Shown in pieces: positions 1 through 4,225 of a stretch of DNA of 6,005 nucleotides. The notes under the pieces are model-generated. The model did no database searches and was not told the origin of the DNA. It saw only the letters and a program-made list of their open reading frames with translations. Position 1 is the first letter of the stretch; each line of letters begins with the position of its first letter. This stretch comes from a bacterium (GTDB taxonomy: Bacteria > BMS3Abin14). The position numbers and the translations under genes were made by a program. Location of the stretch: assembly GCA_022865845.1 (NCBI GenBank), contig JALHUC010000012.1, positions 1 to 6,005 on the forward strand. Reading direction: 5' to 3'.

Positions 1-549
1 ACCACTGTGTTCGAGGGAACCTCCGAGATCCACTCCATGTATCCGGCTCTGCACCTCGTGAGGGACCTGGGAAAGCGTCTTAAGGGTATGGGGCGTGCAT
101 CCCAGTTCCTGTATCTGGTTAAACACGCATACAGCAGTCCCGTGATCGACCTGAGCAATGCTGACCCAGTCATGAGCAAAGCCGGGGACATGGCCTCTGA
201 TCTGACCCGCCAGGTGAGAAAACTGGTGCACATGGGTGTTCTGAAATACGGCAAGGGAATCGTCTCCAGGGAGTTTCTCCTGCGCCGGATCACCAACCTG
301 AGCATGGCCGGCTACAGCCTTCTGGCAACAGCAGCTGCTCTTGATACCGCGCAAAAGGCAGGGCAGGACGTATCCGACAGGCTCAACCTCCTGGAGTACC
401 TGATTGAAGAGGCTCGCGAAACCCTGAGATCCCAGGGCCGGATCGAGGAAAATGGTTTGGAAAAGGCCCCCAGGAAGGTTTTCGCGGACATCATTGATAA
501 CTTCACACAAAGTCATCAATCCGCCCCAGGCGGGGCGCCAAATCAATGA
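1..549 (+). CDS. Acyl-CoA dehydrogenase, VLCAD/ACAD9-like, C-terminal part (5' end outside window)
   Basis: This is the last 182 residues of an FAD-dependent acyl-CoA dehydrogenase, which oxidises acyl-CoA to trans-2-enoyl-CoA and passes electrons to ETF. The frame is open from base 1, so the gene starts upstream; the GTG at 7 is an internal Val. Residues 4-10 read FEGTSEI, the family signature, and the Glu at bases 13-15 matches the catalytic base of VLCAD (human Glu462 in FEGTND). After it comes a helical region of about 160 residues with the stretch KGIVSREFLLRRI, close to the KGIVNEQFLLQRL of human VLCAD as I recall it. Short-chain and medium-chain dehydrogenases lack this extra domain, so long-chain substrates are likely (inference). 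The final residues, roughly SAPGGAPNQ, are encoded by the start of the downstream hairpin repeat and may not be the ancestral C-terminus. The genes that follow belong to the same pathway. Confidence 0.93.
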   Translation, partial: TTVFEGTSEIHSMYPALHLVRDLGKRLKGMGRASQFLYLVKHAYSSPVIDLSNADPVMSKAGDMASDLTRQVRKLVHMGVLKYGKGIVSREFLLRRITNLSMAGYSLLATAAALDTAQKAGQDVSDRLNLLEYLIEEARETLRSQGRIEENGLEKAPRKVFADIIDNFTQSHQSAPGGAPNQ

Positions 550-647
550 CCAGCGATGCAAGTCATTGATTTGTGAGGAAAGCGAAAATGACACTTTTCG
601 CTTTCCGTGGAGCAAAAAGCCACGAATGGACTTTTTGCGACCCTATA
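521..647. repeat. Structured tandem repeat, unit 1 (four hairpins)
   Basis: This is the first of two near-identical units. It contains four inverted repeats in a row. Hairpin A has CGCCCC (522-527) against GGGGCG (532-537) with a 4-base loop. Hairpin B has a perfect 12-bp stem (539-550 with 562-573) and an 11-base loop. Hairpin C has a perfect 12-bp stem (577-588 with 595-606) and the loop TGACAC. Hairpin D has GCAAAAAG (612-619) against CTTTTTGC (631-638), continued by a 3-bp inner stem (620-622 with 627-629), a bulged A at 630 and the tetraloop CGAA. The unit ends in GACCCTATA (639-647). It overlaps the last codons and the stop of the dehydrogenase gene. No hairpin is followed by a free U-run, so none is a textbook Rho-independent terminator. 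I do not recognise the family. It could act as an RNA processing or stability element, an attenuator, or a dispersed palindromic element of the REP/ERIC kind. The left edge is uncertain by several bases. Confidence 0.88.
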
Positions 648-648
648 A

Positions 649-779
649 CCGCGCCCCCGTCTGGGGCGCCCGAATCAATGACGGAGGATGTAAGTCATTG
701 ATTCGTGAGGAAAGCGGAAATGACACTTTTCGCTTTCCGTGGAGCAAAAAGCCGATAACGGACTTTTTGCGACCCTATA
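649..779. repeat. Structured tandem repeat, unit 2 (four hairpins)
   Basis: This is the second copy, 132 bases downstream of the first (131 in the GC-rich first hairpin, because of one indel). It matches unit 1 at 96 of 108 bases between 672 and 779. Hairpin A is GCGCCCC (651-657) with GGGGCGC (663-669). Hairpin B is a perfect 12-bp stem (671-682 with 694-705). Hairpin C is a 12-bp stem (709-720 with 727-738) with one G-T wobble (717/730). Hairpin D is GCAAAAAG (744-751) with CTTTTTGC (763-770), an inner stem CCG/CGG (752-754 with 759-761), the loop ATAA and a bulged A at 762. Relative to unit 1, the pair A540-T572 has become G672-C704 and A622-T627 has become G754-C759, so pairing is kept by double changes. 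The unit ends 39 bases before the thiolase start, where it could influence expression of the downstream genes. Confidence 0.88.
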
Positions 780-818: not shown

Positions 819-2105
819 ATGAGTGACCGCATCGTCATCGCCGGGGGCGTCCGAACCCCCTACGTCAAAGCCGGGTCCGTTTTCAAAGATCTTACTGCGG
901 TAGACCTGGGCCGCCTTGTCGTATCTGAACTGGTCGCCCGCACAGGCATCGATCCGGGGACTGTGGATTCAGTCATTATGGGCAACGTGGCCCAGCCTCC
1001 CGAAGCGGTCAATGTGGCAAGGGTCATCAGCCTTTACGCAGGGATACCGGATAGCGTCCCAGGGTACACAGTCCATAGAAACTGCGCCTCGGGGATCCAG
1101 TCTGTAATCTGCGCAGCCCAGGCCATTGAAACCGGAGAAGCCGAGGTGGTTGTTGCCGGCGGGATCGAATCCATGACAAACATCCCCTTCTTTCTCCTCA
1201 AGGAAACCACCGAGATCCTGACAAGGTACCAGAGGGCAAGAACTTTCAAGGATAAACTCGCGGTCCTTTCAACGGTCCGTCCCCGCCATTTCACTCCCCG
1301 TATAGGGCTGATGCTGGGACTCACAGACCCCACATGCAGACTCAACATGGGTGAGACTGCTGAAGTGCTGGCACGGGAATTGGGTATCTCCCGGGAGGTC
1401 CAGGACCAGCTGGCCCTGCTGAGCCACCAAAGGGCGGCAGCGGCCCACGAGGAGGGACGGTTCGTTGATGAGATCATGGCCGTCTACCCGCCCCCCGGAT
1501 ACACCGAGGCTGTCACCTTCGACAACGGTATCCGGCCTCATCAGACCATGGAGCAGCTTGCCAAGCTCAAAACCGTTTTTCAAAAAAGGCACGGGTCGGT
1601 GACAGCGGGCAACTCGTCCCAGATCACCGACGGTGGCGCTGTAGTGCTGGTGACTACGGAGAAAAGGGCTCTGAAACTCGGGCTGGAACCCCTTGGATTC
1701 ATTGAGGGTCACACCTTTGCCGGTCTGGCACCCAAGCGCATGGGGCTGGGCCCTTCCTACTCTACTTCCCTGCTCCTGGAAAAGACGGGGGTCAGCATGT
1801 CCGACATCGGCCTCATCGAGATGAACGAGGCGTTCGCCGCCCAGATCATTGCCAACGAGATGATCTTCGCGGATGACGGACTATCCGAACATTTCCTGGG
1901 CCGCAAGGCCATGGGGGCCATCGACCGCGGCATCATGAACGTGAACGGAGGTGCCATCGCCATGGGCCATCCGGTGGGTTCATCAGGAACACGCCTGATC
2001 CACACCCTGCTCCTTGAGATGAAGAGGAGGTCGGTTGATATCGGCCTCGCAACGCTGTGCGTGGGCGGCGGCCAGGGCGCTGCCGTTCTCCTGAGGAGGG
2101 CATGA
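819..2105 (+). CDS. fadI: Acetyl-CoA acyltransferase (3-ketoacyl-CoA thiolase), FadI/HADHB-like
   Basis: A 428-residue thiolase that cleaves 3-ketoacyl-CoA with CoA to give acetyl-CoA and an acyl-CoA two carbons shorter, the last step of beta-oxidation. All catalytic motifs are visible. The nucleophilic Cys89 is in NCASGIQS, NEAF is at 336-339, His384 is in GGAIAMGHPVGSSG, and the second Cys414 is in CVGGGQG. The length and the region between about 130 and 185, including LTDPTCRLNMGETAE, fit the FadI/HADHB branch (E. coli FadI has 436 residues) better than the shorter FadA or PhaA enzymes of about 390. So does GLGPSYSTSLLLEKTG at about 309-324. One difference is NEAF where FadI and HADHB have HEAF. 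It is followed at once by a FadJ-like gene, its usual partner in a cytoplasmic alpha/beta trifunctional complex. The family is certain; the subfamily and symbol are less so. Confidence 0.95.
   Translation: MSDRIVIAGGVRTPYVKAGSVFKDLTAVDLGRLVVSELVARTGIDPGTVDSVIMGNVAQPPEAVNVARVISLYAGIPDSVPGYTVHRNCASGIQSVICAAQAIETGEAEVVVAGGIESMTNIPFFLLKETTEILTRYQRARTFKDKLAVLSTVRPRHFTPRIGLMLGLTDPTCRLNMGETAEVLARELGISREVQDQLALLSHQRAAAAHEEGRFVDEIMAVYPPPGYTEAVTFDNGIRPHQTMEQLAKLKTVFQKRHGSVTAGNSSQITDGGAVVLVTTEKRALKLGLEPLGFIEGHTFAGLAPKRMGLGPSYSTSLLLEKTGVSMSDIGLIEMNEAFAAQIIANEMIFADDGLSEHFLGRKAMGAIDRGIMNVNGGAIAMGHPVGSSGTRLIHTLLLEMKRRSVDIGLATLCVGGGQGAAVLLRRA
2094..2099 (+). promoter_or_regulatory. Ribosome binding site of the fadJ-like gene, inside the thiolase 3' end
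   Basis: AGGAGG lies in the last codons of the thiolase gene. It precedes three consecutive in-frame ATG codons at 2102, 2105 and 2108, with spacings of 2, 5 and 8 bases. A spacing of 2 is too short. The 8-base distance equals that of the thiolase gene upstream, so 2108 is preferred and 2105 is possible. Confidence 0.75.
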
Positions 2106-2107
2106 TG

Positions 2108-4225
2108 ATGAGTGCTTTCTCCATGAACATATTTAATTCGGTTGCCGTTGTCACCTTTGACACTCCGGACCAGAAGGTCAACATCTTTAACCTTGTTACC
2201 ATAGAAGAGTTCGGTGAGATCCTTGACCAGCTAGAGGAGATGGGGACCGACCTTAAGGGTGCCGTGATCATCTCCGCCAAGGAGCGGAACTTCATAGCGG
2301 GCGCGGACCTGTCGCTAATCGAAGGGATCTCCGATCCCGATGAGGGTGCCGCCATGGCTCGGACAGGCCAGGAGCTTTTTGATCGTATCGCGGCCCTGCC
2401 CTTTACAACTGTCGCAGCAATTCATGGATCATGCCTGGGAGGCGGATTGGAGCTGGCCTTGGCGTGTGATCACCGGGTGGCATCAGACGCTGCTGAAACC
2501 TTCCTGGGGCTTCCGGAAACACAGCTTGGGATCATACCCGGATTCGGGGGAACCCAGCGCCTTCCCCGCCTGGTCGGCCTGCTCGAATCGGTGAGAATGA
2601 TCACAACAGGTTCTCCCGTCTACCCAATGAAGGCACTGAGAACAGCCCTGGTGGACGAGGTTGTCAAAAGAGAACATCTCATGGACGCAGCCATGGCCGC
2701 CGTGGTCGGGAACCTTCCCAAACCATCCAAATCCAGAAAAAACTTCGCCACGAAGGTGGAAAAGCTGCTGGAAAAAAACAATCCGGGCAGGAAGTTCCTT
2801 CTGGGTAAAGCCCGAAAGGCCGTCCTTGCAAACACCCGTGGTCAATACCCGGCCCCTATGGCAGCCATCGACGCCATCGAATACGGACTGAATCACGGGA
2901 TGGCAAAAGGCCTCGCCCGGGAGAACCAGATCTTCGGGCAGATGGCGGTCACCGAAATCTCCAAGAACCTCATCCGCGTGTTTCGTCTGAGGGAATTCTT
3001 CGCCAAGGGCGATCCTTCCCTGGCTGCAGATATCAACAATATAGCGGTCATCGGCGGCGGCGCCATGGGCGGCGGAATTGCGGCTCTTGCCGCTGAACGC
3101 GGCATGCACGTGCGCCTCATCGACATGTCCGAAAAGGCTCTGGGGGCGGCCATTAAATTCCTCAACGACGACGTTGGAAAGAAACGCCAGAAGCACCGCT
3201 ACACCGGGGTCGTGGCCGACTGGATCCCCACCCGCCTCACCGTTGACACACAGATGAGGGGGATGGGTGCATCCGATGTGGTCATCGAGGCGGTGGCCGA
3301 GCGCATGGATGTCAAGAAATCGGTTTTCTCTTCGGTAGCAGGCAAGGTTTCCAACACAACAGCCATCCTCACCAACACCTCTTCCCTCTCAGTGACCGAG
3401 ATGGCCGCTGATGTTCCCCACCCCGATCGCGTTGCCGGCTTTCACTTTTTCAACCCGGTGGACCGGATGCCCCTGGTGGAAGTCATCCGGGGCGAGCAGA
3501 CCTCCGTGGAAACGGCAGACCGCATGGCCGCCTTTGCCAGGAAGCTTGGAAAAGTGCCGATCATCGTAAAGGACAGTCCGGGATTCCTGGTAAACCGCCT
3601 CTTGCTGCCCTACCTCAACGAGGCGTGCCTTCTGCTGGCCGATGGCGCGAACATCGGGCAGATCGACAGGGCGCTCCTCGATTTCGGGATGCCCATGGGG
3701 GTCTTCATCCTCCTGGACCAGGTAGGCATCGACATCGTCGTCCACGCCGGAAGGAGTATGGTAGACCGGTTCGGTGACCGGATGAAGCAGTCCCCAATCC
3801 CCGAGGCCATGGTAGAAGCCGGCAGGCTGGGGAAAAAGAGCGGGAAGGGGTTCTATTCCTGGGACAGCGCCGGGAAGCGACAGACGGACCCGGAAACAGG
3901 CAAACTTCTGGCTCCCCACCTGAGCGGGAAGGAAACCTTCACCAACGACCAGATCGTCCAGAGGCTCATCTACTCCATGATCAACGAAGCAACCCTGTGT
4001 CTGGAGGAAGGGGTCGTTGAGACGGTCCAGGCTGTTGACGCCGCCATGATCTTCGGAGCAGGTTTCCCACCCTTTACCGGCGGGCTGCTGCGTTATGCCG
4101 ACGAAGTTGGAGCCAGGGGCATTGTTGATACCCTGAGCGGTTTAGCCGATGAAGTGGACAGCCGTTTTGAACCTTCAGCCACACTCAAGAATATGGCTGA
4201 AGGCGGGGAGGTATTTTATCCATGA
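2108..4225 (+). CDS. fadJ: Bifunctional enoyl-CoA hydratase / 3-hydroxyacyl-CoA dehydrogenase, FadJ/HADHA-like
   Basis: A 705-residue multifunctional enzyme that hydrates trans-2-enoyl-CoA and then oxidises the 3-hydroxyacyl-CoA with NAD+. The N-terminal crotonase domain (about 1-190) has NFIAGADLSLI, which supplies the oxyanion-hole region, and both catalytic glutamates: Glu115 in CLGGGLELALAC and Glu137 in GLPETQLG. Their 22-residue spacing matches FadJ, not FadB (20). A Rossmann domain begins at about 312, with GGGAMGGG holding the NAD-binding G-x-G-x-x-G at 316-321. The dehydrogenase residues are His446 (GFHFFNPV), Glu458 (MPLVEV) and Asn496 (FLVNR), each four lower than FadB His450/Glu462/Asn500. 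Two C-terminal HAD domains follow (about 492-585 and 611-700), with FGAGFPPFTGG in the last. The length is near E. coli FadJ (714). The thiolase stop lies 2 bases before this start, and the next gene overlaps the end by 4 bases. ATGs at 2102 and 2105 are alternative starts. Confidence 0.95.
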   Translation: MSAFSMNIFNSVAVVTFDTPDQKVNIFNLVTIEEFGEILDQLEEMGTDLKGAVIISAKERNFIAGADLSLIEGISDPDEGAAMARTGQELFDRIAALPFTTVAAIHGSCLGGGLELALACDHRVASDAAETFLGLPETQLGIIPGFGGTQRLPRLVGLLESVRMITTGSPVYPMKALRTALVDEVVKREHLMDAAMAAVVGNLPKPSKSRKNFATKVEKLLEKNNPGRKFLLGKARKAVLANTRGQYPAPMAAIDAIEYGLNHGMAKGLARENQIFGQMAVTEISKNLIRVFRLREFFAKGDPSLAADINNIAVIGGGAMGGGIAALAAERGMHVRLIDMSEKALGAAIKFLNDDVGKKRQKHRYTGVVADWIPTRLTVDTQMRGMGASDVVIEAVAERMDVKKSVFSSVAGKVSNTTAILTNTSSLSVTEMAADVPHPDRVAGFHFFNPVDRMPLVEVIRGEQTSVETADRMAAFARKLGKVPIIVKDSPGFLVNRLLLPYLNEACLLLADGANIGQIDRALLDFGMPMGVFILLDQVGIDIVVHAGRSMVDRFGDRMKQSPIPEAMVEAGRLGKKSGKGFYSWDSAGKRQTDPETGKLLAPHLSGKETFTNDQIVQRLIYSMINEATLCLEEGVVETVQAVDAAMIFGAGFPPFTGGLLRYADEVGARGIVDTLSGLADEVDSRFEPSATLKNMAEGGEVFYP
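4207..4212 (+). promoter_or_regulatory. Ribosome binding site of the acyl-CoA synthetase gene
   Basis: GGAGGT lies within the last codons of the fadJ-like gene, 9 bases before ATG 4222. The ATG shares four bases (ATGA) with the fadJ stop, an arrangement typical of translational coupling. Confidence 0.8.

What the first reader, a model, noticed from the sequence alone, without database searches (positions are those of the whole stretch)
521..779. Tandem four-hairpin element whose two copies differ only in structure-preserving ways
Two units of about 130 bases (period 132) each hold four consecutive hairpins. Between 540-647 and 672-779 there are 12 differences. Five are in the 11-base loop of hairpin B (551-554, 559) and two in the tetraloop of hairpin D (623, 624). 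Two make the compensatory change A540-T572 to G672-C704, and two make A622-T627 to G754-C759. One turns A-T into a G-T wobble (585/717). No difference disrupts a stem. Chance alone would have been expected to put several changes in the stems. This points to a structured RNA, or a DNA hairpin element kept by selection, that I cannot assign to a known family.
Basis: seen in the sequence. Interest (0 to 1): 0.75.

Follow-up and report, generated by a model that had tools for sequence, protein, structure and literature searches.

The report
Five-hairpin mobile repeat splitting an operon
This stretch is one copy of a repeat of about 157 bases, scattered many times through the genomes of one little-known bacterial family, that keeps its row of hairpins by paired mutations, is often flanked by a duplicated 6-base target, was likely spread by the enzyme of a larger element with similar ends, and here lies between two fat-burning genes that overlap in four relatives.

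Summary
The 12 differences fall as stated and break no tested stem pair (random placement: 0.16%). A fifth, decayed hairpin at 494-519 is the left end; complete copies (about 157 nt) read Z-A-B-C-D, and the window holds Z plus two tandem A-D units.

It is a dispersed mobile repeat: 11 of 12 genomes of the host family, 0 of 49 others. Ends are imperfect 19-bp inverted repeats; 50 of 161 copies have a perfect 6-bp flanking duplication (4.2 expected), and one filled/empty pair was found. Stems covary (134 double-changed cells, 33.9 shuffled), and G·U exceeds A·C, pointing to one strand. In four relatives the flanking genes overlap by 4 nt; here they lie 269 nt apart.

Best reading: a new MITE-like family, likely mobilised by an IS1182-related transposase. 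No Rfam family reaches threshold. Transcription and host function are not shown; the sense-orientation bias rests mainly on one genome.

The parts
494..519 (+). [not shown]
   Evidence: aligned as L001:494-647; letters printed
522..537 (+). Hairpin A, unit 1 (CGCCCC-AGGC-GGGGCG)
   Evidence: family hairpin A is helix 2
539..573 (+). Hairpin B, unit 1 (12-bp stem, 11-nt loop)
   Evidence: helix 3
577..606 (+). Hairpin C, unit 1 (12-bp stem, 6-nt loop)
   Evidence: helix 4
612..638 (+). Hairpin D, unit 1; its 3' arm is part of the right terminal inverted repeat
   Evidence: helix 5
639..646 (+). Tail GACCCTAT, rest of the right terminal inverted repeat, unit 1
651..669 (+). Hairpin A, unit 2
671..705 (+). 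Hairpin B, unit 2; compensatory A540-T572 to G672-C704
709..738 (+). Hairpin C, unit 2; A-T to G-T wobble at 717
744..770 (+). Hairpin D, unit 2; compensatory A622-T627 to G754-C759
771..778 (+). Tail GACCCTAT, right end of the element
1..549 (+). 3' part of a probable acyl-CoA dehydrogenase gene whose last 17 codons (496-546) and stop (547-549) are element sequence
   Evidence: ORF; ACAD9/ACADV C-terminal domain, 26.8 bits, just under its cut-off of 27.8; the name rests on that and on my reading of the sequence
819..2105 (+). Thiolase gene, start codon 269 nt after the dehydrogenase stop
   Evidence: Thiolase_N, Thiolase_C; 4-nt overlap of the two genes in 4 of 4 relatives read

Best explanation
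The array is a copy of a miniature inverted-repeat element that likely spreads when the transposase of a larger, IS1182-related element acts on its similar ends and inserts it at AANNTT with a 6-bp duplication, and that here, lying between two genes that overlap in relatives, would be transcribed as a structured spacer RNA. Shown: copies dispersed through the genomes of the host family; imperfect terminal inverted repeats; the 6-bp duplication, with one filled/empty pair; a 520-aa transposase gene between ends like the repeat's own in G006, with pieces of the same element in G009 and G010; compensatory evolution of the hairpins; G·U in excess of A·C in the stems, which indicates constraint on the sense strand rather than on a symmetric DNA cruciform; in the window, 269 nt that include the element where four relatives have a 4-nt gene overlap. 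Inferred: that this transposase moves the repeat; transcription across the element; loss of translational coupling; tandem A-D duplication by recombination at the repeated ATCAA. The wobble excess is strong on internal branches and does not differ clearly between insertion contexts, so the structure is likelier needed for the element's own propagation, or for being tolerated inside transcripts, than for regulating each neighbouring gene.
For: 38 blastn rows in the window's own genome. Full-element search: 11 of 12 family genomes, 0 of 49 others. Z-hairpin pattern: 9 of 12 family genomes, 0 of 374 others. Exact right end in the named species collection: 45 stretches, all in 4 MAGs. Perfect 6-bp flank duplication in 50 of 161 copies against 4.2 by permutation, consensus AANNTT; filled site L205 against empty site L129 with one AACTTT. 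Partner: L126 holds a 520-aa frame (1261-2820, minus strand) with DUF772 and DDE_Tnp_1 domains, nearest NCBIfam model IS1182 at 116 bits, under its cut-off of 270. Its two ends match the repeat's left end at 15 and 13 of 19 bases (13 or more in 0.023% of random 19-mers), each beside an AANNTT hexamer; the G009 copy starts AAGGTT-GATGGCTTCGCAAAAAGT. The transposase is found in 4 of 12 family genomes, all bearers of the repeat: whole in G006, pieces in G005, G009, G010. Covariation: 134 double-changed cells, shuffles 33.9, slid 5-37; RNAalifold finds helices A-D unaided. Stem changes on a tree: Watson-Crick to G·T 214, to A·C 120; A>G 108 against T>C 44 in stems, while the normalised ratio in unpaired columns is 0.84 (Fisher p 5e-8). 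Dehydrogenase stop and thiolase start overlap by 4 nt in 4 of 4 relatives read.
Against: The partner is a single complete copy, found in one genome; its two flanking hexamers differ (AATATT and AAGGTT, 4 of 6), so its own insertion is not proved, and no match to it was found in 8 of 12 genomes, 7 of which bear the repeat. 56 of 161 copies (35%) have 3 of 6 or fewer matching flank bases, and the window's own duplication is not recognisable. C>T against G>A in stems does not differ from unpaired columns (p 0.59). Hairpin Z covaries little and is not predicted by RNAalifold. Orientation bias in tight codirectional gaps (48 sense, 19 antisense) comes mostly from G005 (24:4); without it 24:15, p 0.20. 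No expression data.
Confidence: 0.8

Rival explanations
1. A non-mobile structured RNA gene or cis-regulatory RNA of the host, copied by ordinary duplication and kept for a host function.
For: Strong covariation, sense-strand wobble excess, sense bias within tight gene gaps in G005 (24:4).
Against: Inverted-repeat ends, 6-bp target duplication and an empty site; a transposase gene between like ends; G003, a single-contig genome of the same family, has none; terminal stem changes do not differ clearly between sense and antisense insertions.
Confidence: 0.08
2. A mobile DNA element whose hairpin arms are kept matched by DNA-level repair of imperfect palindromes (or for a cruciform bound by protein) rather than by selection on RNA.
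For: Template-switch repair in quasi-palindromes can mimic compensatory change (recalled, not from a call); terminal-branch changes show only a mild wobble excess (130 to G·T, 80 to A·C); C>T/G>A not skewed.
Against: A cruciform is symmetric between strands, yet A>G exceeds T>C 108 to 44 in stems and not in unpaired columns; G·U pairs persist in many copies (24 and 18 of 101 at two pairs of hairpin C).
Confidence: 0.2
3. A REP/BIME-like palindrome family moved by a Y1 (RAYT) transposase through single-stranded DNA hairpins of one strand.
For: Y1 transposase matches in 8 of 12 family genomes; strand-specific hairpins would fit a single-strand mechanism.
Against: G003, without elements, has two Y1 matches, and four genomes with elements have none; in the 10 of 14 Y1 loci fetched, none is bracketed by the ends; a 6-bp target duplication is not expected of Y1 transposition (recalled).
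Confidence: 0.03

Closest known systems
IS1182-related insertion sequences (NCBIfam NF033551)
   Same: The candidate partner's transposase has its best NCBIfam match here (residues 53-449).
   Different: 116 bits against a cut-off of 270: a relative, not a member by that test. The repeat itself codes for nothing of its own.
BOX elements of Streptococcus pneumoniae (PMC3049150, 12 passages seen)
   Same: High-copy, modular (boxA-boxB-boxC with boxB repeated), stem-loop RNA predicted, shown transcribed with operons, proposed to be moved in trans by an IS.
   Different: No sequence comparison made; here a 6-bp AANNTT duplication, and the repeated unit is A-D rather than one middle box.
ERIC / IRU elements (PMC2229807, passages seen)
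   Same: Small intergenic mobile repeat, transcribed, orientation matters for the mRNA.
   Different: ERIC has TA at its ends and is counted among repeats that fold end to end; here five separate hairpins and an AANNTT target.
Correia/NEMIS elements (PMC2229807, passages seen)
   Same: MITE with inverted-repeat ends that folds in mRNA, proposed RNase III target.
   Different: Here column 144 of the right end covaries with hairpin D's own arm (column 120), not with the left end, so end-to-end pairing is not what is conserved.
Caulobacter CIR elements (PMC2229807, passages seen)
   Same: Separate hairpin arms instead of a single end-to-end stem.
   Different: Two arms and no inverted-repeat ends listed; here five hairpins, inverted-repeat ends and target duplication.
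Rfam RF02351 psRNA14
   Same: Weak match to 537-613.
   Different: 27 bits against a gathering score of 60, E 0.24: treated as chance.

Membership tests
MITE (miniature inverted-repeat transposable element) | Short, non-coding, many dispersed copies | tested here: met
   121 of 172 full copies are 154-158 nt; 301 distinct copies of at least 60 columns in the loci held; end pattern 233 hits in G006, 135 in G005, reversed control 0
MITE (miniature inverted-repeat transposable element) | Terminal inverted repeats | tested here: met
   Left GATGACTTCGCAAAAAGTC against right GACTTTTTGCGACCCTATC: 19 bp with 4 mismatches; nearly perfect in L069
MITE (miniature inverted-repeat transposable element) | Target-site duplication on insertion | tested here: met
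   50 of 161 perfect 6/6, permuted 4.2; one empty site
MITE (miniature inverted-repeat transposable element) | A coding element with related ends in the same hosts that could move it | tested here: met
   520-aa transposase between like ends in G006 (15 and 13 of 19 bases to the left end); 5' ends in G009 and G010 alike. That it moves the repeat was not testable
IS1182 family (for the candidate partner) | NCBIfam NF033551 at or above its cut-off | tested here: not met
   116.3 bits, cut-off 270
REP/BIME with RAYT | Y1 transposase gene flanked by the repeat | tested here: not met
   10 of 14 Y1 loci fetched and scanned, none bracketed
Rfam structured RNA families | Match at or above the gathering score | tested here: not met
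BOX / ERIC / NEMIS | Sequence homology to the family | not tested
   Their sequences were not compared directly; the comparison rests on structure and published descriptions

The most novel reading that the evidence does not exclude
A transposable element with ordinary inverted-repeat ends and a 6-bp target duplication whose success depends on the fold of one strand: its propagating lineages keep their hairpins on the sense strand, so an RNA or single-stranded form of the element itself takes part in its mobility, or the sense RNA is a built-in device that lets it sit inside operons without killing expression.
Probability: 0.25. Interest if true: 0.75.

Novelty: new variant of a known kind. 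Interest (0 to 1): 0.48.

Why it matters
Bacterial MITEs are usually described by their ends; here some 300 copies from one family show compensatory evolution of an internal hairpin array with a strand-asymmetric wobble signature, and a candidate transposase with matching ends is in hand. That makes two questions directly testable: whether a miniature transposon is selected for its RNA fold, and whether this enzyme moves it. It also shows a concrete cost: a gene pair that overlaps by 4 nt in relatives is split by 269 nt, and the upstream gene ends in element-coded residues.

Tried and rejected
L126 showed a third end, 1,671 bases beyond a complete repeat copy, in both outputs and I passed over it; searches show the gene between. 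Because of this the confidence of the best explanation went from 0.75 to 0.8, the non-mobile rival from 0.12 to 0.08 and the Y1 rival from 0.07 to 0.03.

Rfam psRNA14: sub-threshold match, rejected. RAYT/REP: see the rival. Other transposases: all 16 PF01609, 10 PF00665 and 4 PF00872 loci and 10 of 14 PF01797 loci were scanned for ends with up to 2 mismatches; apart from L126 none is bracketed, though several have a repeat copy nearby; PF14104 has no match in 12 genomes. Other IS families were not searched. Nine opposite-facing end pairs (up to 1 mismatch) lie 250-5000 bp apart in about 2.1 Mb of loci, overlaps included; the largest ORFs of seven of them (9 ORFs) are ordinary genes, not every ORF was scanned, and two pairs are too short for a gene. 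That scan missed the L126 element because its ends differ more. Phages, plasmids, viral contigs: no match (the window's array against plasmids, one full copy against phages, the exact right-end pattern against viral contigs). A 2-bp duplication was my first reading (49 of 93), replaced by 6 bp after copies with other right ends matched their left flank. End-only minis of 45-46 bp (21 of 28 rows, 3 of the 21 with perfect 6-bp duplications) looked like proof that the ends suffice for movement; not proof, because a deletion between the GCAAAAAG repeats of Z and D would give the same length in place. A locus-specific RNA role would predict stem constraint that depends on context; none was clear. 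Literature: searches for psRNA14, for MITE with deltaproteobacteria, for SZUA-178 and for the Z sequence string gave nothing on this family; other papers were seen as listings or passages only; the Geobacter element Chunjie is known here only through passages of PMC10969869.

Rows dropped: for, 120 distinct copies of 154-158 nt were reduced to 110 by removing near-identical ones, and I gave 101 of the 110, leaving out nine by hand (L013, L016:126, L069, L157:4140, two of L168, L210:15314, L212:4354, the plus-strand duplicate of L200), mostly divergent or of uncertain orientation; this may raise the paired percentage slightly. One search used all 291 copies. Orientation counts leave out 95 of 259 clusters (no neighbour 55, far 31, in ORF 9).

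Full report
WHAT IS IN THE WINDOW. Of 33 B, C and D pairs tested none is broken in unit 2; 12 random substitutions spare all 33 in 0.16% of trials. Both units fold far better than shuffles (z -7.8 and -6.9). The unit is not complete at 521: 494-519 is a decayed fifth hairpin, Z, the left end of the family's full element.

IT IS A DISPERSED FAMILY. blastn with 515-785 gives 38 rows in the window's own genome, a 2.86-Mb assembly in 662 contigs. With one full copy as query, 11 of 12 genomes of the host family match and 0 of 49 outside it; only G003, a single contig estimated 100% complete, has none. The exact Z-hairpin pattern is found in 9 of 12 family genomes and 0 of 374 others. Exact right ends in the named species collection occur in 45 stretches of four MAGs (SZUA-178, SZUA-204, CSMAG_1715, ZodW_Metabat.265), labelled Proteobacteria or Pseudomonadota; records near the window may be left out there. 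I did not establish a formal name for the family. An end pattern that matches right ends and some left ends has 233 hits in G006, 135 in G005, 31 in G010 and 14 in G009, with 0 for the reversed control, so copy numbers lie between about half of these counts and the counts.

ANATOMY. The full element is Z-A-B-C-D; 121 of 172 full copies are 154-158 nt. Its left end GATGACTTCGCAAAAAGTC and right end GACTTTTTGCGACCCTATC are imperfect inverted repeats; L069 has them nearly perfect. Variants: tandem A-D units after a single Z (window, C571 twice, C291, C586, three units in C604), junction at a repeated ATCAA; a short-B form (CAAATCGAAGATTTG) in G005; end-only minis of 45-46 bp and a sibling family of about 98 bp with the same kind of left end.

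MOBILITY. Among 161 copies with both ends placed, 50 have six of six matching flank bases, against 4.2 by permutation; 56 have three or fewer. The duplicated sequence reads AANNTT in most. The next base outward agrees in 14 of 50 on the left and 26 of 50 on the right, the latter where the target itself favours G (27 of 50). Copies whose right end is not AA (L043, L099, L110, L035, L039) match their own left flank, which placed the boundary. One region is seen with and without an element: AACTTT twice when filled, once when empty (L205, L129, both in G006). The other ten rows are self-matches of tandem copies or poor alignments. Elements also abut one another with two bases between the TCAA and TTGA ends, which fits a target resembling the element's ends.

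A CANDIDATE PARTNER. In G006 contig C1 (L126) a 520-aa frame at 1261-2820 on the minus strand has DUF772 and DDE_Tnp_1 domains; NCBIfam's best is IS1182 at 116 bits, under the cut-off of 270. Read along the gene, the element starts AATATT-GACGGCATCGCAAAAAGTATC and ends GACTAATTGCGGGTCCATC-AAGGTT, about 1.66 kb. The two ends match the repeat's left end at 15 and 13 of 19 bases, and each other at 12; 0.023% of random 19-mers reach 13. Its far end abuts a complete copy of the repeat. The 5' end in G010 is AATAAT-GACGGACTCGCAAAAAGTATC and in G009 AAGGTT-GATGGCTTCGCAAAAAGTATC, which is the repeat's end almost letter for letter; the G009 3' end is more diverged. By protein it is found in 4 of 12 genomes: whole in G006, pieces in G009, G010 and G005, no match in G003. 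Its own flanking hexamers agree at 4 of 6 only. So the link is by ends, target and hosts; movement of the repeat by this enzyme is inferred.

STRUCTURE IS KEPT. On 101 copies, 96.0% of 5225 cells pair, 18 of 52 pairs change on both sides (shuffled 10.7, slid 4-11), and 134 cells are double-changed (shuffled 33.9, slid 5-37); no shuffle of 500 reached any observed value. The tool warns that relatedness inflates such scores; the slid control keeps relatedness. RNAalifold predicts helices A to D by itself, not Z, and Z's pairing on 120 copies is near what independent columns give (84 unpaired cells, 94 expected). End-to-end pairing is not what is conserved: column 144 follows column 120 of hairpin D (CG 84, TA 32) and not column 12 of the left end (79 paired, 71.7 expected).

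ONE STRAND IS CONSTRAINED. On a FastTree tree of 291 copies, Watson-Crick pairs change to G·T 214 times and to A·C 120 times; by hairpin 64:19 in B, 46:30 in C, 33:17 in A, 40:29 in Z, 21:16 in D's lower and 10:9 in its upper stem. A>G exceeds T>C 108 to 44 in stems, while the per-base ratio in unpaired columns is 0.84 (Fisher p 5e-8); C>T against G>A is not different (p 0.59). A double-stranded cruciform would treat both alike. The excess is 84:40 on internal branches and 130:80 on terminal ones; the terminal G·T share is the same (0.57) for sense and antisense insertions in codirectional gaps. Parsimony events on a shallow tree are not fully independent, so the p-values are guides.

CONTEXT. 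With a codon-usage ORF caller of my own, codirectional gaps hold 78 sense and 43 antisense elements; with at most 40 bp of residual gap 34 and 8, above 100 bp 30 and 24. After merging shared insertions (164 to 155) the tight class is 33 and 5. But this is carried by G005 (24:4 at 100 bp or less); the rest give 24:15, p 0.20; stricter gene calls give 32:14 and 12:3 in all, 15:10 and 3:1 without G005. Suggestive only.

THE WINDOW'S INSERTION. In L135-L138 (G003, G007, G011, G010) the dehydrogenase stop and the thiolase start overlap by 4 nt, 4 of 4. In the window they are 269 nt apart and the upstream frame ends inside the element after 17 element-coded residues. Downstream lie a 3-hydroxyacyl-CoA dehydrogenase/enoyl-CoA hydratase gene and an AMP-binding enzyme gene, so by gene content this is a beta-oxidation cluster; co-transcription is inferred. 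The duplication flanking this copy is no longer recognisable.

VERDICT. A new MITE-like family, seen in one bacterial family only, unusual for its covarying hairpin array, tandem A-D units, AANNTT target and strand-asymmetric stems, with a likely partner transposon. Host function is not shown. Likeness to BOX, ERIC, NEMIS and CIR is by way of working, not by shown descent.

Noticed in passing
L126:1243-2905: An element of about 1.66 kb coding a 520-aa IS1182-related transposase, ends like the repeat's, abutting a complete copy of the repeat.
   Followed up: yes
L230:11782-11880 and L231:18970-19067: A sibling repeat of about 97-98 bp with the same kind of left end but a different interior and right end (GACTTTTTACGAGGTT type).
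   Followed up: no
L071:6816-6958, L073:5389-5529, L076:2307-2445 and others in G005: A subfamily of about 136 nt in which hairpin B is shortened to CAAATC-GAA-GATTTG while its stem is kept.
   Followed up: partly
L234:4591-4636, L166:5474-5520, L044:1313-1359: 45-46-bp elements made of the two ends only, with perfect 6-bp flank duplications.
   Followed up: partly
L090:18056-18239: A copy with about 26 extra bases in the loop of hairpin D that look self-complementary.
   Followed up: no
G003 (single-contig genome, same family): The only family genome of 12 without the repeat; it has two Y1 transposase matches but none to the candidate partner.
   Followed up: partly
window 496-549 and about 790-826: The upstream gene ends in 17 residues coded by the element; what may be a remnant of its original C-terminal coding sequence lies after the element.
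   Followed up: partly
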